From positions 1-64,000 of the forward strand of contig JAUCZK010000015.1 of assembly GCA_030373145.1 (NCBI GenBank): a DNA stretch of 64,000 nt, written 5' to 3'. The notes beneath the pieces are model-generated. The model made no database searches. It was not told the DNA's origin and worked only from the letters and a program-made list of their open reading frames with translations. Below are positions 29,803-63,154 of this stretch, piece after piece (the first letter of the stretch is position 1; every line of letters starts with the position of its first letter). Origin of the DNA: Cyanobium sp. CZS48M (GTDB lineage Bacteria; Cyanobacteriota; Cyanobacteriia; PCC-6307; Cyanobiaceae). The position numbers were made by a program, and so were the translations under genes.

Positions 29803-30468
29803 TCAGAGCCTCAGAAGACCGCTGATGGCGAGGTAGATGCTGAACCCGAAGCAGAGTGCAGCATTGATCTGACGCTGATGGCACTCGCACCAGCCGCTCA
29901 TGATCACGAGGCTGCGGCGCCCGGCCGATCCCGCCAGCACCAAGGCCAACGGCGGGCCCAGGGACGGGAGCAGCGTGATCAGACTGACCAGCGCCGCCAT
30001 CAAGGCCCGCGTCATGGGTGAAACCCCGGATCGGGCCAAATCTTGAATCGCGGGTAAGAACAACACCAAGCTGGTGAGATTGGCGGCCATGAGGCCCATA
30101 CCAAGCAGCAAAGAAGCGCGCAGAGGATGGGCAACAGACGCGGGTGTGGCGGCCTTCTGATGGTCGGGCCGCTGCAGCATCTCAATGCCGAGCACCACCA
30201 GAAAGATCGCCAGCACCAGGTGCAGGCAAGCTGAAACCGGATCGGGGCCCGGGATTCTGGCCGGCAGGGCTGCTCCTGTAGCCAGGCCCAGCAGCGCCCA
30301 GAGGGCCACCACCAGGGCCGAGCCCAGGGCAAAGCACCAACCTCGACGCAGGCCGGAGCCTGGGCTGGTGAGGGTCAGCACCTGACCCACCAACAGCAGG
30401 GGGCTCACGGCTGCTCCCAAGGCCAGGGGCAGCACTTCAAGCGCGAGGGAGGTTGGCGAAGGAACCAT
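29803..30468 (-). CDS. GAP/LysE-like membrane transporter
   Basis: A 221-residue polytopic membrane protein with about six hydrophobic segments (for example ALEVLPLALGAAVSPLLLVG, HLVLAIFLVVLGIEMLQ and ALMAALVSLITLLPSLGPPL). The pattern matches the GAP (sulfolipid/glycopeptidolipid-addressing) family, related to LysE-type exporters. Members help move lipids or small solutes across the inner membrane. ATG 30468 is preferred over the TTG six bases upstream. It is divergent from the formylglycine-generating enzyme gene, and the 59-bp gap holds both promoters. Confidence 0.75.
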   Translation of the reverse strand: MVPSPTSLALEVLPLALGAAVSPLLLVGQVLTLTSPGSGLRRGWCFALGSALVVALWALLGLATGAALPARIPGPDPVSACLHLVLAIFLVVLGIEMLQRPDHQKAATPASVAHPLRASLLLGMGLMAANLTSLVLFLPAIQDLARSGVSPMTRALMAALVSLITLLPSLGPPLALVLAGSAGRRSLVIMSGWCECHQRQINAALCFGFSIYLAISGLLRL

Positions 30469-30527
30469 GGGCAAAGGCTTTCGTCCATACTCTCAGGCTC
30501 TTGGATACACCCCCCGGCGGAGACTTC

Positions 30528-31517
30528 ATGCCCCTGCGTCTGCTGGCCGCGACCCTTCTCATCCTGGGCTTGCTGATTCAGCCGCTTGAGGCGGATGCCG
30601 TGCAGGCCCCTCCTTCCTGCCAGGCAGGCATGGAATGGATCCCCGGCGGCACGTTCCGCATGGGGTCGGATGACCACTACCCCGATGAGCTCTCGGTTGA
30701 TGCGGTGACGGTGGAGGGTTTCTGCATCGACCGCCATGAAGTCACCAATGCCGAGTTCGATGCATTCGTGACGGCCACGGGCTATGTCACCGTGGCGGAA
30801 CGGCCGATCCCCAAGGATCAGTACCCCGATCTGGCTGACGATCAACGGGCTCCCGGTGCCCTGGTCTTCGAAAGCCCAGCTCCTGGAAGTGAAGTCGCCT
30901 ACCTGAGCTGGTGGCACTGGACTCCCGGGGCAAACTGGCGGCATCCGCAGGGCCCCGACAGCGACCTTGAAGGCCTGGCCAACCATCCCGTCGTGCAGGT
31001 CGCCTTCAGGGATGCCGAGGCCTATGCCGCCTGGGCCGGCAAGGCCCTTCCCACCGAGGCCCAGTGGGAATTCGCCGCCAGGGGCGGCCTCAAGGATCAG
31101 ATCTTCAGCTGGGGGAAAACCTATTCAACGAAGAAGGCCAACACCTGGCAAGGGGAGTTCCCCATCCACAACCAGGAGAAGGATGGCTACTTCGGCACGG
31201 CCCCGGTGGGGAGCTTTCCGCCCAACGGCTACGGGCTCCAGGACATGACCGGCAACGTCTGGGAGTGGACGCAGGACTGGTACCGACCCGGCCACCAGGG
31301 CATGGCCGATCATGTGAATCCAGCTGTGAGCGAGCAGGAGCTGAGTTTCGATCCCCGCGAGCCTGGCATCGCCAAGCACGTGATCAAGGGTGGTTCCTTC
31401 CTCTGTGCGAAGAACTATTGCAGCCGCTACCGCCCGGCGGCCCGGGAGGCCCTCGAACCGGATACAGGCACGTCCCACATTGGTTTTCGGCTGGTCTCCG
31501 GCCCGACCGAGGGGTAG
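30528..31517 (+). CDS. Formylglycine-generating enzyme, sulfatase-activating
   Basis: A 329-residue protein from ATG 30528 with GGAGA six bases upstream. The N-terminus (LRLLAATLLILGLLIQPLEA) looks like a signal peptide. The FGE fold starts at MEWIPGGTFRMGSDDHYPDE and contains RHEVTNAEFDAFV, LPTEAQWEFAARGG and TGNVWEWTQDWY. Both copper-binding catalytic cysteines of true FGEs are present: Cys293 and Cys298 in GGSFLCAKNYCSRYRPAAR. It converts the sulfatase active-site Cys to formylglycine using O2. It directly precedes a sulfatase gene and serves at least that one and the sulfatase at 36618. Confidence 0.92.
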   Translation: MPLRLLAATLLILGLLIQPLEADAVQAPPSCQAGMEWIPGGTFRMGSDDHYPDELSVDAVTVEGFCIDRHEVTNAEFDAFVTATGYVTVAERPIPKDQYPDLADDQRAPGALVFESPAPGSEVAYLSWWHWTPGANWRHPQGPDSDLEGLANHPVVQVAFRDAEAYAAWAGKALPTEAQWEFAARGGLKDQIFSWGKTYSTKKANTWQGEFPIHNQEKDGYFGTAPVGSFPPNGYGLQDMTGNVWEWTQDWYRPGHQGMADHVNPAVSEQELSFDPREPGIAKHVIKGGSFLCAKNYCSRYRPAAREALEPDTGTSHIGFRLVSGPTEG

Positions 31518-31660
31518 TCGTTGCGACTCAGCTGGGCACGCCTACTCAATTCGGGCAAAAAAGTCAGCACCTCGGCCTCCTCCCCGCCATTGCCTGGAAA
31601 TATGGGTTGCCTGCGCTCCCGTCAGGGGTCGCTGTCCTCTTCAGATACCCAGCTCGGCGC

Positions 31661-33466
31661 ATGGCCCCACTGGCACCAACGATCCGTCGGCTGACCAGCC
31701 TGGTGCTGGCGCTGTTCTTCAGTCTTTCCCTGGTGGCCTGCGGCGGGAAAGGGCCAGACCTCAACGAGGCCTCCGCGAACCCCACGGCGATGCCCACCGG
31801 CCAGCCGGTGGCGCGGCCGATGGGAATGCCCACCGAGAAATTCGCGAACAAGCCGAACATCCTCTTCATCATGGGTGATGACATCGGCTGGATGCAGCCG
31901 AGCATCTACCACCGCGGCCTGATGGTGGGCGAAACCCCCAACATCGACCGGATCGGCAAAGAGGGGGCGATCTTCATGGATTACGTGGCCATGCAGAGCT
32001 GCACATCGGGGCGCAATGCGTTCTTCACCGGCATGTACCCCCTGCGGACGGGCATGATCCCGCCCCAGCTGCCCGGCAGCCCGAGCTACCTCAGGCCCGG
32101 CACTCCCGCTCTGGCCAAGTTCCTGCGGGATCAGGGCTACACCACGGGAGAATTCGGCAAGAATCATCTGGGTGACCACACCGCGTCCCTGCCTACGGCG
32201 CACGGTTTCGAGGAGTACTGGGGCTACCTGTATCACCTCGATGCCATGCAGCAGGTGAGCTTCCCCGACATCAACAGCTCGCCGACGCAACAGGCGGTTG
32301 CGCCCCCTTGCCAGAACACTCCCGTCCCTGGGCTGCCTGCCGTGGCCGGTGCGGTGGATCCCAAGTCCACAACCTGCCTCACCCCGCCCCGGCCGGTGAT
32401 CTGGTGCACGTCGTCCGACGGCACAGAAAAGAACCAGAGCTGCAAGGACGAGGGACCGCTGACCCTGGAGCGATCCAAGACCGTGGACGAGGAGATCTCA
32501 GCCAAGGTGATCGACTTCCTCGACCGCAACGATCCCAAGAAGACCAACAAGCCGTTCTTCGTGTGGTACAACCCCGCACGGATGCACGTCACCACCGTGC
32601 TCTCGGACAAATACATGAACATGGTGGGAACCAAAGGCGGCAAGGATTGGGGTGTCAACGAAGCAGGCATGAAGCAGATGGATGACAACATCGGCTATGT
32701 GCTCAAGAAGCTGGATGACATGGGCCAGCTTGACAACACGCTGATCGTCTTCACCACCGACAACGGTGCCGAGATGATCTCCTTCCCCGACGGCGGTGTT
32801 ACTCCCTTCAAGGGCCAGAAGGGCGAGTCCTACGAAGGCGGTTATCGCGCCCCCATGGTGGTGCGCTGGCCCGGTCACATCCAGCCCGGCACCGTGAAAG
32901 ACCAGCTGTTCGCCGCCCTGGACTGGGTGCCAACCCTCGTGGATGTCGCCGGCGGTCCAAAGGGAGAGAATCTGAAGAAGCAGATCGAATCCGGCAATTA
33001 TCCCGGCATCGTCAAGACCACCCTCGATGGCGTCAATCAGCGCGACTACCTCGAAGCCAAGTCTGATAAGTCGGCACGAGATTACTTCTACTATTACTCC
33101 GGGGCCACACCATCAGCCGTGAGGTACAAGAACTGGAAGATGTATTACACCATGTCAGAGCCAGGAGCTGAAGGCTGGATCATGCCCCTGATCCCCTTCC
33201 ACTTCACCTTGGTTCAGAACATCAAGCGCGATCCCTTTGAGCAGGCCGTCGGCGTCAGTCAAAAATCGGCAATGAGCATTGGTGGTGCCCTGGGCGGTCC
33301 GGTCACGGCGTTCCTTTACGACTGGAACATGTTGCCCATCGGCCAGCAGTTGTGGGAAAAACAGTTGATGTCCTACAAGACGTTCCCACCTCTTCAGGCG
33401 CCTGAGACCTACAACCTCGATGGCATCCTGAAGCAAGTCCAGGCGGCGAACCATCCCAGCGAATAG
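31661..33466 (+). CDS. Sulfatase (S1 family), putative lipoprotein
   Basis: A 601-residue sulfatase from ATG 31661. The signal sequence ends with a lipobox (FFSLSLVACGG, Cys27). The core starts KPNILFIMGDDIGWMQPSIY, giving the metal-binding Asp pair. The modification site is Cys114 in MQSCTSGRNAFFTGMYP, so the classical CxPxR is CTSGR here, with Ser in place of Pro. Further ligands are in HVTTVLSDKYM and VFTTDNGAEMISFPDGG. It would hydrolyse a sulfate ester outside the cytoplasmic membrane. The upstream FGE is the obvious activator; an HdeD-like gene follows after 16 bp. Confidence 0.9.
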   Translation: MAPLAPTIRRLTSLVLALFFSLSLVACGGKGPDLNEASANPTAMPTGQPVARPMGMPTEKFANKPNILFIMGDDIGWMQPSIYHRGLMVGETPNIDRIGKEGAIFMDYVAMQSCTSGRNAFFTGMYPLRTGMIPPQLPGSPSYLRPGTPALAKFLRDQGYTTGEFGKNHLGDHTASLPTAHGFEEYWGYLYHLDAMQQVSFPDINSSPTQQAVAPPCQNTPVPGLPAVAGAVDPKSTTCLTPPRPVIWCTSSDGTEKNQSCKDEGPLTLERSKTVDEEISAKVIDFLDRNDPKKTNKPFFVWYNPARMHVTTVLSDKYMNMVGTKGGKDWGVNEAGMKQMDDNIGYVLKKLDDMGQLDNTLIVFTTDNGAEMISFPDGGVTPFKGQKGESYEGGYRAPMVVRWPGHIQPGTVKDQLFAALDWVPTLVDVAGGPKGENLKKQIESGNYPGIVKTTLDGVNQRDYLEAKSDKSARDYFYYYSGATPSAVRYKNWKMYYTMSEPGAEGWIMPLIPFHFTLVQNIKRDPFEQAVGVSQKSAMSIGGALGGPVTAFLYDWNMLPIGQQLWEKQLMSYKTFPPLQAPETYNLDGILKQVQAANHPSE

Positions 33467-49255: not shown

Positions 49256-50041
49256 ATGACAAAGTCGTCCCTAAGCAAACCGATGGGCCTTCTTGTCTCC
49301 ATCGTCAGCGTCCTGATCGCCTTGGTCGTCTGGCAGATTCTTGCCAAGCAAGGTCTGCTGGGCAAAAACTTCCCAGGCTCCCTCGAAACCCTGAAAGAAC
49401 TCCAATGGTGGCTCTCGGATCCCTTCTTCAACAATGGTCCTAATGATCTGGGAATCGGCACCAATCTGCTGATCAGTTTACGCCGGGTGATGATCGGCTA
49501 CAGCTTGTCCATCGTTGTCGCCGTCCCGCTCGGACTGTTGATTGGGGTGTCCCGCCTGGCCAGCAGTTCCGCCAACCCCTTCATTCAACTGCTGAAGCCG
49601 GTCTCTCCTTTGGCCTGGCTGCCAATCGGCCTTTTCGTCTTCAGGGATTCGGAGCTGACCGGCATTTTTGTGATCTTCATTTCCAGTGTCTGGCCAACAT
49701 TGATCAGCACATCCTTTGGCGTACAAACCATCAACCCCGATTACCTGCGGGTCTCCAGATCCCTGGGTGCCAGCCAGCTGCGCACCATCACAAAAGTCGT
49801 GCTCCCCGCTGTCATGCCTAACATCCTGGCGGGCATGCGCATCTCGATGGGCATTGCCTGGCTGGTGATCGTTGCCGCTGAAATGCTGTTGGGTTCCGGC
49901 ATTGGCTACTTCATCTGGAATGAATGGAACAATTTATCACTCCCAAACATCTTCGTGGCGATCATCGTGATCGGCCTCACTGGAATTCTTCTTGATCAAT
50001 TCATTGGAGCTCTACAGAAACGCTTTGACTATCAACTCTGA
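49256..50041 (+). CDS. cynB: Cyanate ABC transporter permease
   Basis: A 261-residue membrane protein of the NrtB/SsuC permease type with six hydrophobic segments. The EAA-type loop that contacts the ATPase lies around RVSRSLGASQLRTITKVVLP. Other features are LLISLRRVMIGYSLSIVVAV and LLGSGIGYFIWNEWNN. It lies 31 bp after cynA and 37 bp before cynD, in the order usual for these operons. It would form a homodimeric channel for cyanate with cynD as ATPase. Confidence 0.9.
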   Translation: MTKSSLSKPMGLLVSIVSVLIALVVWQILAKQGLLGKNFPGSLETLKELQWWLSDPFFNNGPNDLGIGTNLLISLRRVMIGYSLSIVVAVPLGLLIGVSRLASSSANPFIQLLKPVSPLAWLPIGLFVFRDSELTGIFVIFISSVWPTLISTSFGVQTINPDYLRVSRSLGASQLRTITKVVLPAVMPNILAGMRISMGIAWLVIVAAEMLLGSGIGYFIWNEWNNLSLPNIFVAIIVIGLTGILLDQFIGALQKRFDYQL

Positions 50042-50078
50042 TGTCCAAAGATCTGCCGAACCAGCTTTGTCCAATGTC

Positions 50079-50927
50079 ATGTCAGCCACAAACGACTACA
50101 GCGAAGTCCAGCTCAGTATCGAAAATGTTGGCAAGGTCTTCACATCTGAGCCTGGCCTGCTGAGATCGCTGAGCAGGCGTCGCACCAGCGCTGGATACGT
50201 TGCCCTTGAGGACGTTAATCTCCGAATCGAAGAAAATACCTTCGTCTCTATCATCGGTCCATCGGGCTGTGGCAAGTCCACCTTGCTTAATCTGATGGCC
50301 GGCCTGGATGAGCCCAGCTCAGGTCAGATCCTAATGGACGGGCTTAGAATCCGCGGCCCCGGGCCTGATCGTGGAGTTGTTTTCCAGAACTATGTCCTGA
50401 TGCCATGGCTCACGGCCCTGGAGAACGTCATCTACGCGATCGAAACCGCACAACCCAGCATCAGCAAGGGCAACGCCAAGGAACAGGCCCGTGAGTATCT
50501 GTCCATGGTGGATCTCGAAAAGGCGATGGACCGCTATCCCAGGGAGATGAGTGGAGGGATGAAACAACGCGTGGCCATTGCCAGAGCCTTATCGATCAAG
50601 CCCAAGATCCTGCTGATGGATGAGCCCTTTGGGGCCCTCGACGCCCTGACCCGCGGCTATCTTCAGGAGGAAGTTCTGCACCTGTGGGAAAACCACCGGG
50701 TCACGGTGGTCCTGGTGACCCACAGCATTGACGAGGCCCTGCTTCTCTCGGACCAGATCGTGTTGATGTCGAGCGGTCCGAATGCCCGGATCAGTGATTT
50801 GATCGACCTTCCGCGGATTCGTCCGCGCAAACGGAACATGATCGAAACCAATCCGGATTTTCTGGCCGTGAAACAGCGGCTTGAAGACCATCTGTTCCGG
50901 GAAACCAGGGCCATCGAAGAAAAGTAG
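50079..50927 (+). CDS. cynD: Cyanate ABC transporter ATP-binding protein
   Basis: A 282-residue ABC ATPase from ATG 50079; the frame starts upstream at 49992 but inside cynB. Walker A is [19 protein letters not shown], the signature motif is [18 protein letters not shown] and Walker [15 protein letters not shown]. The late H-loop is [18 protein letters not shown]. The type matches NrtD/SsuB/TauB ATPases. It drives uptake through the permease encoded just upstream and is followed 82 bp later by cyanase. Confidence 0.92.
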
Positions 50928-51009
50928 TCCTTCGACCACTTTCCGGCCCAACCATCGCTTTTCCTCCCATCCCGTTCACCCCTACCCCTTCATTCTTGAC
51001 GGATCTGCC

Positions 51010-51456
51010 ATGAGCACGCTCACCCCCCTCAGTCACACCCTGCTCAACGCCAAGCGCAAAAAAGGCATCAGCTTTGCGGAACTGGAAACGCTGCTCAATC
51101 GCGATGAGGTCTGGATTGCCAGCCTGCTCTATGGCCAGGCCACAGCCTCGCCGGAGGAAGCACAGTCCCTTCTGGCGGCCCTGGATCTGGATCCAAGCCT
51201 GGCTGGCGAGCTGACCATTCCTCCCGTCAAGGGCTGCCTGGATCCCGTGGTCCCCGCCGATCCATTGATCTATCGCTTCTACGAAATCATGCAGGTGTAC
51301 GGCCTGCCGATGAAAGATGTGATCCAGGAAAAATTTGGCGACGGCATCATGAGCGCGATCGATTTCACCCTGGAAGTCGATAAAGTTGAACATCCAGCTG
51401 GTGATCGGGTCAAGGTCACCATGTGCGGCAAATTTCTGCCTTACAAGAAGTGGTGA
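51010..51456 (+). CDS. cynS: Cyanate hydratase (cyanase)
   Basis: A 148-residue enzyme that decomposes cyanate with bicarbonate to CO2 and carbamate, which yields ammonium. The N-terminal helical domain contains [20 protein letters not shown]. The C-terminal dimerisation/active-site domain has [20 protein letters not shown] and [20 protein letters not shown], with the catalytic Arg and Glu in the first and Ser in the second. It forms a decamer. It is the last gene of the operon with cynABD, so imported cyanate is converted at once into usable nitrogen. Confidence 0.97.
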
Positions 51457-56828: not shown

Positions 56829-56987
56829 GATCAAGAGTCTCCGCCAGGATCCGCAGTGTCGATCCCAGCGGCTCGGGATGCAGGCGCAGGCGTCCCAGGA
56901 GCCCATCGAGCTGCGCTGCACGAACACCTGTATGGGGGGCAACGAGGGGACGGGCGCTGGCTGGAGGTGATCGGAGGCCGTGCTCAT
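56791..56987 (-). pseudogene. Third gene of the HEPN-MNT operon, frameshifted at a G6 tract
   Basis: The ATG at 56987 overlaps the MNT stop as TGATG. The first frame gives STASDHLQPAPVPSLPP up to a run of six G on the plus strand (56934-56939). The next frame then continues HTGVRAAQLDGLLGRL and later TLRILAETLDLGT to a TGA at 56791. One extra base in the run would join them into a protein of about 65 residues. A change in a homopolymer run could be a recent loss or phase variation, or a sequencing error. The product resembles nothing I recognise. Confidence 0.45.
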
Positions 56988-57367
56988 CACCCCGGGCCCC
57001 GCCATATCCAGAGCAGGTCCTTCAGCAACGCCTGAGCCATCCGTCCGGGCGCTCCAGAGGCAGGTTCCAGCAGGGCCTGAAACTCTTTCGGAGTGAGGAT
57101 GAGGGCATCACAGGCCAGGGTCAGTTCTTCGAAGGGCCAGAGCAGCAGGCGCTGACTCTGGGTGCCCATCCCCTGGCGATCGATGAGCAGGAGATCGAGA
57201 TCACTCCCCACAGCCGCATCTCCCCGGCCATAGCTACCGAAGACGCCGACAGCCAACAGCTCAAGGTGAGCCGAAGCCTGACGTTCAGCCCAGGTTCTGG
57301 TGGCCTGAATCACCTGGCTGGGCTCCGGCCATCGCAGCACCGATTGCGTCAACGAGCGAACGGGCAT
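56987..57367 (-). CDS. MNT-type nucleotidyltransferase domain protein
   Basis: A 126-residue minimal nucleotidyltransferase. The signature is LLAVGVFGSYGRGDAAVGSD followed by DLLLIDRQ, with the DxD-type metal ligands (SDLDLLLID). The MNT partner of HEPN toxins (MntA) can act by oligo-AMPylating the toxin. The frame extends to 57421; ATG 57367 overlaps the HEPN gene by 83 bp, and a GTG at 57313 with GGAG upstream would reduce the overlap to 29 bp. It follows the HEPN gene directly, as usual in such pairs. Confidence 0.8.
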   Translation of the reverse strand: MPVRSLTQSVLRWPEPSQVIQATRTWAERQASAHLELLAVGVFGSYGRGDAAVGSDLDLLLIDRQGMGTQSQRLLLWPFEELTLACDALILTPKEFQALLEPASGAPGRMAQALLKDLLWIWRGPG

Positions 57368-57728
57368 GGTGCAAGGCGTCGAGACTCTGCAGGCGTCCAA
57401 AGTGGTCTGTGGGCGCTCCATCCGGAAGGCTATCGGGGCATCTGGTGGGGATGTAGAGCGCGTCGAGAATGCGCAGGCGATCGATCAGGTCAGTGATGGC
57501 GTTCGCCAGCCCCTGACGAGACCCCGATGGCAGATCACGAAACAGGCGTCCCAGGCCATGGCCCCAGGCCTCCTGACCCAGGGACAGGTGCAGGCCCTTG
57601 AGCGCCTTTTCCACCGCCTGATGGCAGGCGAAGCAGGCCCATTCGTGGTGACCATTCGCCGCACTCAGTTCCGCTTGGGCCAGATCGGCGCGGGCCTGCG
57701 CCAGCCAGTCCTGGGAGCGATCCGCCAT
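57285..57728 (-). CDS. HEPN domain protein
   Basis: A 147-residue HEPN protein starting ADRSQDWLAQARADLAQAEL and with the family core HHEWACFACHQAVEKALKGL. Typical HEPN toxins carry an RX4-6H RNase motif near the end; here the C-terminal helix reads DALHHARSLVDAIGAAM. A clean Rx4-6H is not visible, so the RNase activity is doubtful. It precedes an MNT gene with overlapping frames, the arrangement of HEPN-MNT toxin-antitoxin and antiphage modules. It may also act as a nucleotide-sensing or anti-toxin-like subunit. Confidence 0.8.
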   Translation of the reverse strand: MADRSQDWLAQARADLAQAELSAANGHHEWACFACHQAVEKALKGLHLSLGQEAWGHGLGRLFRDLPSGSRQGLANAITDLIDRLRILDALYIPTRCPDSLPDGAPTDHFGRLQSLDALHHARSLVDAIGAAMAGAQPGDSGHQNLG

Positions 57729-57939
57729 GGGCTCCGGTGTGGTGCGATCAGCGTGCCACAGGCCCGTGGGGGATGGATGGATCGAACCAGCGAGAACTGG
57801 CCGCCGGCCATGGTGCCATCATGGCTGGGTTTCTCCACTTGATGTTCGCCATTCTCCTGATTGGCCTACATACACCTTCAGGCAACTTGCTGAAAAGGGC
57901 AGAAAAAGCCTGAGGGCTGAGGGCTTGAGGGACTAAGCG

Positions 57940-59619
57940 CTAAGAAGGCAATCCTGGGGGGAGACAGCAGACGCGGAAGCCCACGTTGCCGTAGCGGTTG
58001 ACCGGGAGGACGCTGTTCCGGAAGGCCGAGCGGCAGATCCCGGGGAAGTTGCTCCAGGAGCCGCCGCGCAGCAGCCGGTACTCCTGATCCTGGAGGCCCT
58101 CCAGGGCCGCATCAGACTCCTCCCAGGCACTGCCATCCTGCCGCCAGCCAGGGCCCACCGGGTCAGGATGCCAACAGTCGCCGCACCATTCGAACAACTG
58201 GCCGTGCATCTCCGCCAGCCCCCAGCGGTTCACCACCGCCAGGGCCCCGGTTGCCGTCGGACGCTGGTGGTACTCCCCTTTTCTGCCCCGGCCATAGGTG
58301 GAATTGGCGTCATAGTTCGCCCAGCTGGGATCCAGCGTGTCGCCGCAATGGAAGGGTGTGTTGCTGCCTGAGCGGCAGGCCACCTCCCAGCGGCTCTCGC
58401 TCGGCAGTGCCAGCTGGGGCGCTGCCGTTCCGCCGACCAGGGCGGTCCATTCCTCGACCAGCCAGTGGTTGAGGCGCGCCAGCCATTCGCCGCAGTCGAA
58501 CCAGCTCACGCTGTCCACCACCAAGCCTCCTGGCTGGGCAAAGCGCTCCCAAAGGCCCTTGGCTTCATAGGTGCCCGGGCTGGCGGCGATCTCCCGCTCA
58601 ATCAGCGGCAACCCCGCCACCGCTGCCCACTGGGCCTGGCTGATCGGAAACCGCGCCATTGCAGTGGGCTCCAGCCGCACCCTGCGCTGGGCTTCCACAT
58701 TCACCCCCTCGCACCGCTGCCGAAATCTGGGGTAGACATCACGGCCAGCTTCCCCCTGCTGGCCTTCCCGCTCCTCCAGTGAGCCGATCGTGTACTCACC
58801 GCCAGGCACCAGCACCATCTCCAGCTGCTCCCCCTCGGGGAGGGGCAGCTGCCACACCTCAACCGTCTCAAGCACCTCGGTGCGCAGCTCCAACCCCTTG
58901 CAATCTTCCTGGTTGAGCGCGGTGAGGGTGAGCATCGGCACCACACGGCCCGCTCCCGATCCAAGCGAGGGCAACTCCCGGCTGGCCGCCAGCTGCAGGC
59001 CCCGTGCAGCGCCCTGGAACAATGGAAGGGCCGCGTCGATTCGCTGCCAGTCGCTGTCTTCGTGCACCACCACCTCCAGCGGCTGGCGGCTCAGCTGTTG
59101 TTCCAGGGCTGCCGTGATCCGTTGGCGCTGCTCCACCTGGGTTTCGGCCCCGACAGCGCTCAGCCCCAGCGCTTCTGCCGCGGCCCTTCGCAACGCCACC
59201 GGCTGGGTCTCCTCCCCCATCACCTGCTCCAAGGTCGCCACGGCCACCTCGCCACCGATCAGACACAGCACCACCGCTGCCTCACTCCGCTCCTCGATCG
59301 GCAGCTCCCCATCCCGCATCGCCAGCCCCAGCCGTTCGCTGGCCACCGTGCGCACCGCCAGCCGCTCGCCGGGCTCGGCACCGGAGGCCGCCATCGCCGC
59401 CAGCTTGGCGATCGCATCGCGCCGCTCGCTGGCCACCGGCACCCCCAGCTCCCACATCCACTTCCTGGCCCGCTGCAGCGCCAGCCTGTAGCGCTCCTCC
59501 TCAGGATCCAGAAACGCCAGCCGGCCCAGCCGGTCAGGGGCGTCGGCCGGCATCGACAGGGCCCGGCTTTTGCTCTGCTCGCTGCAGCAGTCCCGCAGGG
59601 CCAGCAGGAAGCCCCGCAT
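57940..59619 (-). CDS. HEAT-like protein with FGE/C-type-lectin domain, putative DGR target
   Basis: A 559-residue protein from ATG 59619 with GAGGAG 8 bp upstream, 13 bp after the DUF4062 stop. The N-terminal half is helical (EERSEAAVVLCLIGGEVAVA, RRAAAEALGLSAVG), like HEAT repeats. The middle has PMLTLTALNQEDCKGLEL and VWQLPLPEGEQLEMVLVPG, and the C-terminal 250 residues form a SUMF1/FGE-type C-type-lectin domain (RWEVACRSGSNTPFHCGD, NRWGLAEMHGQLFEWCGD). The catalytic FGE cysteine pair is absent. The C-terminus RGGSWSNFPGICRSAFRN up to VGFRVC has the layout of a DGR variable region. Confidence 0.8.
   Translation of the reverse strand: MRGFLLALRDCCSEQSKSRALSMPADAPDRLGRLAFLDPEEERYRLALQRARKWMWELGVPVASERRDAIAKLAAMAASGAEPGERLAVRTVASERLGLAMRDGELPIEERSEAAVVLCLIGGEVAVATLEQVMGEETQPVALRRAAAEALGLSAVGAETQVEQRQRITAALEQQLSRQPLEVVVHEDSDWQRIDAALPLFQGAARGLQLAASRELPSLGSGAGRVVPMLTLTALNQEDCKGLELRTEVLETVEVWQLPLPEGEQLEMVLVPGGEYTIGSLEEREGQQGEAGRDVYPRFRQRCEGVNVEAQRRVRLEPTAMARFPISQAQWAAVAGLPLIEREIAASPGTYEAKGLWERFAQPGGLVVDSVSWFDCGEWLARLNHWLVEEWTALVGGTAAPQLALPSESRWEVACRSGSNTPFHCGDTLDPSWANYDANSTYGRGRKGEYHQRPTATGALAVVNRWGLAEMHGQLFEWCGDCWHPDPVGPGWRQDGSAWEESDAALEGLQDQEYRLLRGGSWSNFPGICRSAFRNSVLPVNRYGNVGFRVCCLPPGLPS
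57970..58077 (-). other. Putative DGR variable region (VR)
   Basis: On the minus strand this runs from the RLLRGGSW codons to the GFRV codons, near the C-terminus of the lectin-like protein. Between the fixed blocks nearly every variable residue is encoded by a codon ending in C (AGC, TTC, ATC, GTC, CTC, TAC among them). That is what adenine mutagenesis of AAC codons in a template would give. A GC-rich tail follows, as in homing sites. No template repeat or RT is in the window. Confidence 0.65.
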
Positions 59620-59632
59620 CCGTTCCCGCTCC

Positions 59633-60958
59633 TCAACCGTGCGCTGGCTGCTCCAGTTCCGCCAGGAACTCCTGCCAGAGCGCTCCATCACCGGCGGAAT
59701 CAGCCTCCAGCCTCTCCAGCTGCCGCAGCGCCGCCAGGTAGTCGGCCAGTGGATCCAGCGGAAAGCGCAGCCAGCTCTCGTCGGCGCCAGGAGTACGCAG
59801 CAGGTTCAGATCGATCAGGTAGCCCAGCAGCGCCTGGCGCTGGTTTCTCCCCTCCAGATCCATCCCATCAGCGGCCCCCAGCGCCTGTTCCGCCAACCAC
59901 CCCGGGAACTCCACCGGTTGAAACAGCGGGCGGCCGTTCTGCCCCTGCCGGTGGCTGGCCAGGGCCAGCACCCTCAGGGCCCGCTGCACCATCGGGCCAT
60001 CGATCCTGAGCCCCGCCCGCTGCCGCATCCCCGGATCGGAGGGCGTATCCACCCGCACCACATAGCTGAGCATCAGCTCAGGCACCGATCCGGCCAGCAA
60101 TCCCTGCCTGCGCTTGGCGATCACGTCATCGATGAACATCTGCGCCAGCAGCGCCTCCACCAGGGCCGGATCGAGGTCTTCTGAGGCACCTGGCAGCTGC
60201 GCCTGCAGCCAGGCGCGCACCCGATCCGCCACGCTCTCCTTCTCGCCCAGGGCCGTCTCGATCAGCACCGGCAGCCGCCGTTGCTGCACTGAGGGGATGG
60301 CACAGAAGGCCCGCTCCAGCGCCTGGTGGTGCTGCTCCACCCAGGTGTTGAGGTCGGCGGGGGTGTAAGTCTTCCGGTTATCAGGGCCTGTGCCTCCGGC
60401 CAGCGCCTTGAGGGAGCGCTCCAGCAGCTGGGAGAGCTGGTCCGGGTTGCTGAACTTCTGCAGAGTGAGGCCGGCGTTGCCGACTTTTTCGAGGAAGGCC
60501 TCCTGCCGGTCTCCGTACGTGCGGTCGATCAGAGCCTTGGATGGGATGCCCAGGTCCGCCGCCTCGGTGTCCAGCAGGAACACCAGCCGGGGGATGGGCG
60601 CTTCGGTGGCAGTGTCGAATTCCAGCTCGGTGTACGACACCTCCGGTCGGTCTCTCACAGGGGAGCTGTAGCGCGTGCCGAAGATCCCGACATACACATC
60701 ACAACCTTGTTGCCGCTTCGAACCACCAACACGCTCGGTGCAGACAGCGGCCGGAGCCTGGTCGATGGAGGGGAAATCGGCCATGTCCACCACCACGTGG
60801 CCACAGGCCGAGACCGCGCGCTCGGCCTTGCTCACATAGGAGCCCCCGGAGGGGTACAGACGCAGCTCAGAAGTGTGCGAAAGGAACACCCGCCATGGAG
60901 CAGGGCCGGGGGATGGGGGATTCACGCCAACAGCATCCCTCTGAGACCGGACGCGCAC
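59633..60958 (-). CDS. DUF4062 (TIR-like) domain protein
   Basis: A 441-residue protein whose first 160 residues are a DUF4062 domain: WRVFLSHTSELRLYPSGGSY, CGHVVVDMADFPSIDQAPAA, DVYVGIFGTRYSSP and EVSYTELEFDTATEAPIPRL. DUF4062 is TIR/STIR-like and is common as the effector or sensor head of STAND-type conflict proteins. The remaining 280 residues are helical and lack a recognisable Walker A. It is followed by the HEAT/lectin gene after 13 bp, so one ancestral protein may have been split. The GTG at 60958 is a tentative start. Confidence 0.8.
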   Translation of the reverse strand: MRVRSQRDAVGVNPPSPGPAPWRVFLSHTSELRLYPSGGSYVSKAERAVSACGHVVVDMADFPSIDQAPAAVCTERVGGSKRQQGCDVYVGIFGTRYSSPVRDRPEVSYTELEFDTATEAPIPRLVFLLDTEAADLGIPSKALIDRTYGDRQEAFLEKVGNAGLTLQKFSNPDQLSQLLERSLKALAGGTGPDNRKTYTPADLNTWVEQHHQALERAFCAIPSVQQRRLPVLIETALGEKESVADRVRAWLQAQLPGASEDLDPALVEALLAQMFIDDVIAKRRQGLLAGSVPELMLSYVVRVDTPSDPGMRQRAGLRIDGPMVQRALRVLALASHRQGQNGRPLFQPVEFPGWLAEQALGAADGMDLEGRNQRQALLGYLIDLNLLRTPGADESWLRFPLDPLADYLAALRQLERLEADSAGDGALWQEFLAELEQPAHG

Positions 60959-61161
60959 GATAGGCAGCTCCTCTGCCGGATCACCAGGCCATCGCCCAAC
61001 CAGACCTGCAAGGAGATTGGATCAGGAACATCAAGGTGGATCTTCTGCTGGCACGTAATCTCAGCGAGGAGGCCTTCGCGCGGTGCGGAGCCATGGTGAG
61101 CACGCTGGAGAACGCTCCCACAAACTGGGACGGCAGACACCCCCACACCCTGGTTGTTGCC

Positions 61162-61764
61162 ATGGCCCACTCCGAACGCGTTCCCAAACCCATGCAGGAG
61201 CGGTTCGAGAGCCTGTGTGAGGCAACCGATGCCTTCTGCGACCTCCACCTCAACGGTGAATACAGGCAGCTGATCCGCGAGCTGCTGGCGGCTCTGTGCC
61301 TCAAACGGCCGTCACCGCTGGCCAGGGGGAAGGTGACCACCTGGGCAGCTGCGGCGGTGCACGCCATCGGCACCGCCAACTTCCTGTTCGACAAAACGCA
61401 GACCCCCCACTGCAAGAGCCCGCAGATCTTCGCCTTCTTCGGAGTCTCCGCCAGCAACGGCCAGACGCGATCGAAGCAGCTGCGCGATCTGATGGGGGTG
61501 GATTGCTTCTCGCCCGAATGGACCCTGCCCAGCAGGATGGACGCCAACCCCATGGTGTGGATGGTGGAGGTGGATGGCTTCATCCGTGATGCGCGGAGCC
61601 TGCCCTTGCAGGTCCAGGAGATCGCCTGGGCAAAAGGCCTGATTCCCTACATCCCCGCCCTGAAAAAAAGCTCCAGCGCTGCGAAGCACGGCCCGGAAAC
61701 CAGGTCGCAGGAGCCAGAAGCCACGACGCCGGCACCGGATCATGGTCAGCTGGGGCTGTTCTGA
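61162..61764 (+). CDS. DUF6398 domain-containing protein
   Basis: A 200-residue protein from ATG 61162; the frame opens at 61036 with GTG. It matches DUF6398 through RVPKPMQERFESLCEATDAF, RQLIRELLAALCLKRPSPLA, GTANFLFDKTQTPHCKSPQI and FFGVSASNGQTRSKQLRDL. The C-terminal third is specific to this protein and ends QLGLF. The activity of DUF6398 is not established. It is divergent from the DUF4062 gene. Its stop lies exactly at the breakpoint of the truncated lectin-like gene on the other strand, which suggests it arrived by recombination. Confidence 0.75.
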   Translation: MAHSERVPKPMQERFESLCEATDAFCDLHLNGEYRQLIRELLAALCLKRPSPLARGKVTTWAAAAVHAIGTANFLFDKTQTPHCKSPQIFAFFGVSASNGQTRSKQLRDLMGVDCFSPEWTLPSRMDANPMVWMVEVDGFIRDARSLPLQVQEIAWAKGLIPYIPALKKSSSAAKHGPETRSQEPEATTPAPDHGQLGLF

Positions 61765-63154
61765 TCTGGGGATCGTTGATCCAGGAGCCGCCGCGCAGCA
61801 GCCGAAATTGGCGCTCCATTTCGTTCAGCCCGGGCGCCGGCTGTTCCTGGGCTGTGCGGTCGTCCGGCCCCTCGGCGCCGTGGTGATGCCACCGGTCCTG
61901 GCACCACTCCCATACGTTGCCATGCATGTCGGCCAGTCCCCACCGGTTCACCACTCCATAGGCCCCCACGGCAGTCACGGTCCCCACCCGCTCGCCCTCC
62001 CCACCCGGGGGGAACGCTGACCTGCCGTCGTAATTGGCCCAGGCGGCATCGATCGTGTCGCCGAAATGAAACGGTTTGCCGCTGCCGGCACGACAAGCCA
62101 CCTCCCATTGCGCTTCGCTAGGCAACCCCACGGCCGGTGCCATCAGGCCGATACGGCCCAAGAGATGGCGATTGAGCCGGTCACACCACTCCCGTGCGTC
62201 CTGCCAGCTCACGTTCACCACCGGCAGATCGTCCCCCTTCCTCTCTGCATGGGGATCCGGATTCAGGTCCCTGTTGATCGCCTCCAGGCTCGCCAGAGAC
62301 CGCCACTGCGCCTGGGTGATCGGGTAGCGGGCCAGGGCGCACGCCTGCAGGTGCACCTGCAGGCGTACTTCCACAAGGTGTTCACGGTCCTTACAACCAG
62401 GCGACCGTGCATACATCGCCTGCCAGAGCGTCGCCTGAATCTCGCGTGGATAGGGAAATTCGTCCTCGGCTGCTCCGATCGTGTAGGTGCCCGCTGGCAC
62501 AGCCACCACCTCGAGGGGAAGCCCTCCGGGCAGGGGCAGCTGCCAGACCCGCACCTTCTGCACCGCTGTGCTCACCAGGCCCATTGCGGTGGTGAGGGTA
62601 AGCATGGGCACGATCCGGCCCTCCTCCTGCCCAAGGATCGGCAAACGGCGGGCCGCCACCAGCACCTGGATGGCGCGGCTGGCGCCCTGCCGCAGTGGCA
62701 ACACCTCCTCGCCCTCGAGCAACTTTTCGAGGAGCCGCCAACGCTCCTGCTCAGATTCCCTGGGTGCCGTTACCGTTCCCAGCGCTTCGGCGGCGAGGCG
62801 GCGCAGCTCCAGCGGCTGCTTCGGCTGCAGCAGAACCTGCACCATCAGCTGCTCCGCCTTGTCGCCGCCGATCGCGGCCAGGGCCTGCAGGGCCGCTTGC
62901 CGTTCCTCCGGCTCGCGCCCGTCGCCATCACGCAGCACGGCCCCCAGGGGCTCCACAGCCAGCAGGGCCGCAGGGTTCCCTTCCACGCCCATCAGCTTCA
63001 GGCGGCAGAGGGCATCGAGGCGCCGCAGCAGCTCTCCACAGCCGGCTGCAGATCTGCAGGAACAGGGATCGCAACGGCACTGGAAAACCATGACATCGCC
63101 GAACAACCCGCTGCGCCCGACATCTCTACCTTCGCGTCGCTTCAGGGGGGCCAC
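61580..63154 (-). CDS. Second FGE/C-type-lectin protein, C-terminus lost at a junction
   Basis: A 524-codon frame from GTG 63154, with AGGAG five bases before it. It is paralogous to the protein at 57940: GRIVPMLTLTTAMGLVSTA, VWQLPLPGGLPLEVVAVPAG, EAQWEVACRAGSGKPFHFGD and NRWGLADMHGNVWEWCQDRW. At 61781-61804 it has the same 24 bases as the other gene (RLLRGGSW). The match then ends after about 20 bases, at the stop of the DUF6398 gene at 61764. The last 60 codons are antisense to that gene and are not variable-region sequence. The protein probably misfolds or has lost its binding surface. Confidence 0.65.
   Translation of the reverse strand: MAPLKRREGRDVGRSGLFGDVMVFQCRCDPCSCRSAAGCGELLRRLDALCRLKLMGVEGNPAALLAVEPLGAVLRDGDGREPEERQAALQALAAIGGDKAEQLMVQVLLQPKQPLELRRLAAEALGTVTAPRESEQERWRLLEKLLEGEEVLPLRQGASRAIQVLVAARRLPILGQEEGRIVPMLTLTTAMGLVSTAVQKVRVWQLPLPGGLPLEVVAVPAGTYTIGAAEDEFPYPREIQATLWQAMYARSPGCKDREHLVEVRLQVHLQACALARYPITQAQWRSLASLEAINRDLNPDPHAERKGDDLPVVNVSWQDAREWCDRLNRHLLGRIGLMAPAVGLPSEAQWEVACRAGSGKPFHFGDTIDAAWANYDGRSAFPPGGEGERVGTVTAVGAYGVVNRWGLADMHGNVWEWCQDRWHHHGAEGPDDRTAQEQPAPGLNEMERQFRLLRGGSWINDPQIRTAPADHDPVPASWLLAPATWFPGRASQRWSFFSGRGCRESGLLPRRSPGPARAGSAHHG

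What the first reader, a model, noticed from the sequence alone, without database searches (positions are those of the whole stretch)
57970..58077. Variable region of a diversity-generating retroelement in a lectin-like protein
Seen: the C-terminus has the fixed RGGSW...CRSA...NVGFRV frame, and the changeable positions use codons ending in C in a pattern explained by AAC codons mutated at A. Known: this is the signature of DGR variable proteins of the C-type-lectin/FGE fold. The protein is coupled to a DUF4062 gene, a conflict-system combination. No RT or template is present in the window.
Basis: partly seen in the sequence, partly recalled or inferred. Interest (0 to 1): 0.85.

Follow-up and report, generated by a model that had tools for sequence, protein, structure and literature searches.

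The report
Orphan hypermutation target, engine gone
A cyanobacterium carries a broken immune-receptor-like gene whose tip still bears the marks of a targeted-mutation machine (a diversity-generating retroelement), but the machine itself is absent from this genome, so the region is most likely a frozen leftover and not an active hypervariable site.

Summary
The minus-strand FGE/C-type-lectin ORF (57940-59691) ends in a variable region (VR): 14 of 15 variable codons end in C, against 41% for the same amino acids elsewhere in the gene (p=3e-5). Complete DGRs (RT, template repeat TR, VRs) exist in same-family genomes; 9 of 400 sampled carry the RT. Across 83 columns invariant in six of their TRs, the window VR differs at 12 of 23 A columns but only 1 of 60 non-A columns (p=1.6e-7). 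So this is a real, A-mutated DGR target. Yet the window genome (99.99% complete) has no RT and no TR, so diversification has almost certainly stopped. The gene is also decaying: intact relatives (Cyanobium FGCU6, Synechococcus UW140) are single DUF4062-NACHT-helical-FGE proteins; the window copy has lost the NACHT P-loop core and is split by a frame break. Another VR fragment in the genome nearly matches a non-syntenic copy in another genus (1 of 24 A columns differs, versus 10-21 among active VRs). Best reading: an orphan, frozen relic of a DGR-diversified NLR-like sensor; a new member of a known kind. DGRs in this unicellular family are notable because a 2020 survey called them absent from Synechococcus.

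The parts
57970..58077 (-). DGR-type variable region (RLLRGGSW...VGFRV); variable codons lie between 58053 and 57985
   Evidence: 12 of 23 A columns but 1 of 60 non-A columns differ from the invariant columns of six relatives' TRs; codon list
57949..57963 (-). VR 3' end CTCCCCCCAGGATTG, of VR type (CCCAGG) where TRs read CCCAGCACC (possible IMH boundary)
   Evidence: side-by-side VR and TR sequences
57970..58821 (-). FGE-sulfatase / C-type-lectin-fold domain (putative sensor)
   Evidence: PF03781 E=1.8e-28; phmmer hits include Treponema DGR variable protein 2y3c, E=9.4e-5
57940..59691 (-). ORF: NCH4 helical + repeat region + FGE; C-terminal half of the former receptor
   Evidence: 57% identical to residues 577-1157 of the FGCU6 protein
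59503..59637 (-). NCH4 (NACHT C-terminal helical domain 4)
   Evidence: PF22731 E=1.5e-7
59633..59691 (-). Frame break between the two ORFs (overlap in different frames where relatives are continuous)
   Evidence: tblastn of the FGCU6 protein switches frame here; ORFs
59633..60958 (-). ORF: DUF4062 + NACHT remnants (N-terminal half of the former receptor)
   Evidence: PF13271 E=9.6e-9; no NACHT/AAA match in this ORF
60608..60892 (-). DUF4062 domain (TIR-like NADase family), TELEF motif retained
   Evidence: family function from PMC13174449
60279..60326 (-). Deletion junction 1: segment holding the Walker A motif of intact relatives is missing
   Evidence: FGCU6 nt 597-857 has no counterpart
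60145..60160 (-). Deletion junction 2: Walker B side of the NACHT is missing; CTGCTG shared by both sides
   Evidence: FGCU6 nt about 982-1280 has no counterpart
61583..63154 (-). Second FGE relic (HEAT-like + FGE), both ends lost
   Evidence: PF03781 E=1.2e-34; 38% identical to FGCU6 residues 673-1130
61766..61804 (-). Truncated VR of the second relic (LLRGGSWINDPQ, then unrelated sequence)

Best explanation
This is an orphan, no longer diversifying DGR target. In intact relatives the gene encodes one NLR-like receptor: an N-terminal DUF4062 (TIR-like NADase family) effector, a NACHT-type NTPase, helical repeats, and a C-terminal FGE/C-type-lectin sensor whose last ~110 nt are overwritten by mutagenic retrohoming (RT copies an adenine-rich TR, mutates at A, and replaces the VR). 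In the window the copy was diversified in the past, by a DGR of its own lineage or before arriving by horizontal transfer. The RT and TR are absent now, and the gene has lost its NTPase core and been split into two ORFs, so it is most likely a relic. Shown: A-restricted VR, no RT/TR in the genome, deletions, frame break. Inferred: the sensor/NADase mechanism of the intact form, and present non-function.
For: Complete cassettes (VP-RT-TR) in same-family genomes; TR versus VR in the same genome gives 163 A changes and 2 non-A changes over 10 pairs. The RT carries the DGR motif IGNLTSQ. Window VR against the invariant columns of six TRs: 12/23 A, 1/60 non-A, p=1.6e-7; outside the VR, A and non-A sites differ by only 36% against 28%. 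Own genome has no RT or TR. Intact DUF4062-NACHT-FGE in FGCU6 and UW140, with a TR about 165 bp downstream of the FGCU6 gene. Deletions and frame break.
Against: The genome is a 37-contig draft, so an RT/TR in a gap cannot be fully excluded. The frame break could be a sequencing error. The downstream ORF could still be translated alone as a free FGE sensor. The exact donor TR was not found; the TRs used come from other genera and differ from the window VR at 8 or more non-A sites each.
Confidence: 0.85

Rival explanations
1. An active DGR target served in trans: RT and TR lie in an assembly gap or on a lost or unassembled plasmid or phage, and the VR still diversifies.
For: Trans-acting DGRs with remote VRs are known in cyanobacteria (PMC7517822). 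In the G055 genome one RT/TR serves at least five VRs.
Against: 99.99% completeness with no RT or TR. No genome of the same genus sampled has the RT. The target gene has lost its NTPase core and frame. An orphan VR in this genome (C11) is frozen relative to a copy in another genus.
Confidence: 0.08
2. An ordinary FGE-family protein that never saw a DGR: the RGGS-CRSA-GFR frame and C-ending codons reflect family conservation and high GC.
For: FGE proteins share the RGGS...GFR frame and the region is about 66% GC.
Against: C-ending codons are 14/15 against 41% in the rest of the gene. A-restricted differences from TRs, p=1.6e-7. Ordinary FGEs in the same genome lack the pattern. A homologous receptor has a TR immediately downstream.
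Confidence: 0.03
3. The FGE ORF is a functional, frozen sensor, expressed from its own start and pairing with the truncated DUF4062 ORF as a two-gene system with a fixed specificity.
For: Both ORFs are long and free of stops (1752 and 1326 nt). The two NACHT deletions leave the DUF4062 ORF open. DUF4062 keeps its Pfam match and TELEF motif.
Against: Loss of the whole NTPase core, an overlap in different frames exactly where relatives are continuous, neighbouring relics, and long ORFs being common by chance at this GC.
Confidence: 0.12

Closest known systems
DGR variable proteins of cyanobacteria, including 'remote' VPs (Vallota-Eastman et al. 2020, PMC7517822)
   Same: C-terminal CLec/FGE domain with a 3'-terminal VR differing from TR at adenines; VPs dispersed away from the RT; modular N-terminal signalling domains
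   Different: Here no RT or TR is left in the genome. N-terminal partner is DUF4062-NACHT; NACHT does not occur in that paper's text. Host is of the unicellular picocyanobacterial family, where that paper reported DGRs absent (Synechococcus, Prochlorococcus).
DGR-diversified STAND/NACHT antigen sensors (Dore et al. 2024, PMC10907252)
   Same: STAND NTPase fused to a DGR-diversified CLec/FGE domain; degenerate DGR loci with missing machinery are also described there
   Different: Effector position holds DUF4062; window copy lacks the NTPase core; no RT in the genome; not a multicellular host
DUF4062 TIR-like NADases / Swarozyc (preprint PMC13174449)
   Same: DUF4062 domain; in human proteins (TEP1, NWD1) it sits next to a NACHT, as in the intact relatives here
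   Different: The sensor is a hypervariable FGE domain, not WD40 repeats; NADase activity not tested here
Treponema denticola TvpA (PDB 2y3c)
   Same: FGE-type CLec fold with a C-terminal VR; direct sequence match E=9.4e-5
   Different: Not part of an NLR-like receptor

Membership tests
Diversity-generating retroelement (complete element) | DGR-clade reverse transcriptase in the genome | tested here: not met
   No RVT_1 hit; no hit to a same-family DGR RT at E<=1. The same searches find RTs in relatives.
Diversity-generating retroelement (complete element) | Template repeat homologous to the VR, with A at the variable positions, in the same genome | tested here: not met
   Only VR-type copies found
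DGR variable region (past target) | Differences from a cognate TR confined to adenines | tested here: met
   12/23 A against 1/60 non-A columns, using TRs of other genera in the family; the strain's own donor TR is unknown
DGR variable region (past target) | Ongoing A-specific variation between strains or cells | not testable with these tools
   No second strain of this species or read data available
DGR variable protein, CLec/FGE fold | VR at the C-terminus of a CLec/FGE domain | tested here: met
   PF03781 reaches residue 574 of 583; match to TvpA 2y3c. An AlphaFold model failed (pLDDT 31.5), so the fold rests on sequence.
STAND/NACHT antigen sensor | P-loop NTPase between effector and sensor | tested here: not met
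   Lost in the window; present in FGCU6 and UW140 (Walker A GDGGAGKTS; weak NACHT/AAA Pfam matches)
DUF4062 TIR-like NADase | DUF4062 domain | tested here: met
   PF13271 E=9.6e-9, above the curated cut-off
DUF4062 TIR-like NADase | NADase activity with the catalytic Glu | not tested
   Motif YTELEF is present, but the catalytic residue was not assigned and activity not assayed

The most novel reading that the evidence does not exclude
In picocyanobacteria, sensor genes pre-diversified by DGRs circulate between genera without their RT, as frozen receptor alleles of fixed specificity: a pan-genome repertoire made by a few DGR-bearing donors and shared with RT-less recipients.
Probability: 0.2. 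Interest if true: 0.75.

Novelty: new member of a known kind. Interest (0 to 1): 0.48.

Why it matters
It shows what is left when a bacterial hypermutation system is lost. It also shows that complete DGRs exist in the family of unicellular picocyanobacteria, where a 2020 survey reported none in Synechococcus or Prochlorococcus, and that their targets there include NLR-like receptors joining a DUF4062 (TIR-like NADase family) effector to a hypermutable sensor. The frozen VR shared by two genera makes it testable whether pre-diversified sensors travel without the mutating enzyme. The window copy itself is probably a relic, which limits its own weight.

Tried and rejected
Searched the own genome for RT by family profile, by a same-family RT protein, and for TR by DNA: none. 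Checked the 66-nt window/G005 match at 31.2 kb: an ordinary FGE gene beside a sulfatase, not DGR-related. Asked whether gene-wide A bias explains the VR result: outside the VR the contrast is weak. VR-versus-VR comparisons show no A bias, as expected when both are mutated. Looked for shared flanks with the same-genus orphan VR in G005: none, and that gene is TIR-nSTAND1-FGE. AlphaFold on four sequences failed (pLDDT 31.5), so no fold search was run. Rfam gave nothing, and PADLOC nothing for the DUF4062 and FGE ORFs. Papers on DGRs in Cyanobium/picocyanobacteria: none on the subject beyond the 2020 survey in the held library.

Full report
What is there. The sequence LLRGGSW-SNF-P-GI-CRSA-F-R-NSVL-P-VNRYGN-VGFRV is as described. 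Fourteen of 15 variable codons end in C, against 41% for the same amino acids in the rest of the gene (p=3.3e-5). Because FGE proteins in general share the RGGS...GFR frame, this alone was suggestive only; three ordinary FGEs in the same genome have the frame without the codon pattern.

Independent test with templates from relatives. In a same-family genome (G055) contig C47 holds a full DGR: RT at 114520-115656, TR at 115675-115803, and at least five FGE genes whose VRs match the TR. The RT has the DGR motif IGNLTSQ, as do nine RT loci checked in relatives. Further TR/VR sets were found in G300, G307, G343, G349 and G401. Over ten same-genome TR/VR pairs, 163 A positions and 2 non-A positions changed. 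The window VR was then compared with columns invariant in all six TRs: it departs at 12 of 23 A columns and at 1 of 60 non-A columns (Fisher p=1.6e-7). In the rest of the FGE domain, A and non-A positions change at 36% and 28% against FGCU6. The window VR also ends in CCCCCCAGGATTG, the VR form, where TRs continue CCCAGCACC. I conclude that the VR was made by mutagenic retrohoming.

The machinery is absent. The genome (G000, 2.77 Mb, 37 contigs, 99.99% complete) has no RVT_1 match, no match to a same-family DGR RT at E<=1, and no TR. The same profile and query find RTs in relatives. In 400 family genomes, 9 carry this RT and none of them is in the window's genus. Sixteen of the 400 have strong VR matches (E<1e-10), so 7 have a VR without RT; most of those 7 are incomplete, but G000 and G005 (same genus) are about 99% complete (G005 with 6% contamination).

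The gene is decaying. In Cyanobium sp. FGCU6 (L077) and Synechococcus UW140 (L076) the homologue is one protein of about 1160 aa (truncated by the contig in UW140) with DUF4062, a P-loop NTPase (GDGGAGKTS; weak NACHT/AAA_25 Pfam matches), helical repeats and FGE. FGCU6 has a TR about 165 bp downstream of that gene and an RT elsewhere; its VR differs from that TR at 9 A and 7 non-A positions, so that TR is not its exact last donor. The window's DUF4062 ORF (59633-60958) lacks the two stretches that hold Walker A and the Walker B side, and the homology to FGCU6 switches frame in the 59633-59691 overlap. A second FGE ORF (61583-63154) is cut inside its VR after GGSWINDPQ, and a third fragment lies at C11:17.2 kb.

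Frozen variable regions. The C11 fragment shares an 892-nt stretch (86% identical) with a gene on G066 contig C47 (another genus), with no homology in the flanks held. Their VRs differ at 1 of 24 A columns and 4 of 71 others, while the five VRs of the DGR-bearing G055 differ pairwise at 10-21 of the same A columns. The same diversified allele is therefore carried in two genomes in which no RT was found (G066 is an 89%-complete draft) and has not been re-mutated since they parted. This supports freezing of orphan VRs and, less firmly, transfer of pre-diversified genes.

Mechanism. Shown: A-restricted VR, absence of RT and TR, deletions and frame break. From published work: CLec/FGE domains as DGR-diversified putative sensors and STAND-CLec fusions as putative antigen sensors (PMC7159879, PMC10907252), and DUF4062 as a TIR-like NADase family that in human proteins neighbours a NACHT (PMC13174449). 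Inferred: the intact receptor senses a ligand with its hypervariable FGE domain, oligomerises through the NACHT and triggers DUF4062 NAD+ hydrolysis; the window copy can no longer do so.

Novelty and limits. DGR-diversified STAND sensors and degenerate DGR loci are published. New here, as far as the held open literature shows, are DGRs and orphan VRs in the picocyanobacterial family (a 2020 survey called DGRs absent from Synechococcus and Prochlorococcus, PMC7517822; a 2024 study found the cyanobacterial RT clade 98% multicellular) and the DUF4062-NACHT-FGE combination. No read-level variation could be tested.

Noticed in passing
window 56987-57728 (-): HEPN gene and nucleotidyltransferase (MNT-like) gene, overlapping, next to the FGE locus: a HEPN/MNT-type toxin-antitoxin pair.
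   Followed up: partly
window 30453-31517 (+): Ordinary FGE (sulfatase-maturation type) immediately upstream of a sulfatase-like ORF (31064-33466); no DGR signature.
   Followed up: yes
window 61078-61804: The junction of the truncated second VR with an uncharacterised convergent ORF (61036-61764) recurs at 91% identity in G367 (L109), another genus, so the broken VR and the ORF seem to have been inherited or moved together.
   Followed up: partly
L139 7134-10088 (G005 C9): Same-genus genome carries an intact TIR-nSTAND1-FGE gene whose VR also shows A-restricted change (14/23 A, 3/60 non-A) although no DGR RT was found in that genome.
   Followed up: partly
L123, L124, L125, L160, L161, L162: A second group of DGR RTs (64-68% identical to the first) sits beside FGE genes, with TRs of another type (GGSWFNEPHNCRAANRNSNHPAN-like) in most; several genomes (G307, G349, G401) hold both groups.
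   Followed up: partly
window 57890-57945 and VR 3' flanks of relatives: About 60 nt after the VP stop codons are alike across many VR loci (CTTAATCCCTCAACACTCGGCTGTT-like), perhaps a cis-acting homing signal.
   Followed up: no
Microcystis phages LMM01/MaMV (hits H1-H9): Cyanophages carry FGE proteins about 35% identical to the window's FGE domain; whether they bear VRs was not checked.
   Followed up: no
window 49256-51456: ABC transporter genes followed by a cyanase-like ORF, as in picocyanobacterial cyanate loci (identified from the translation only).
   Followed up: no
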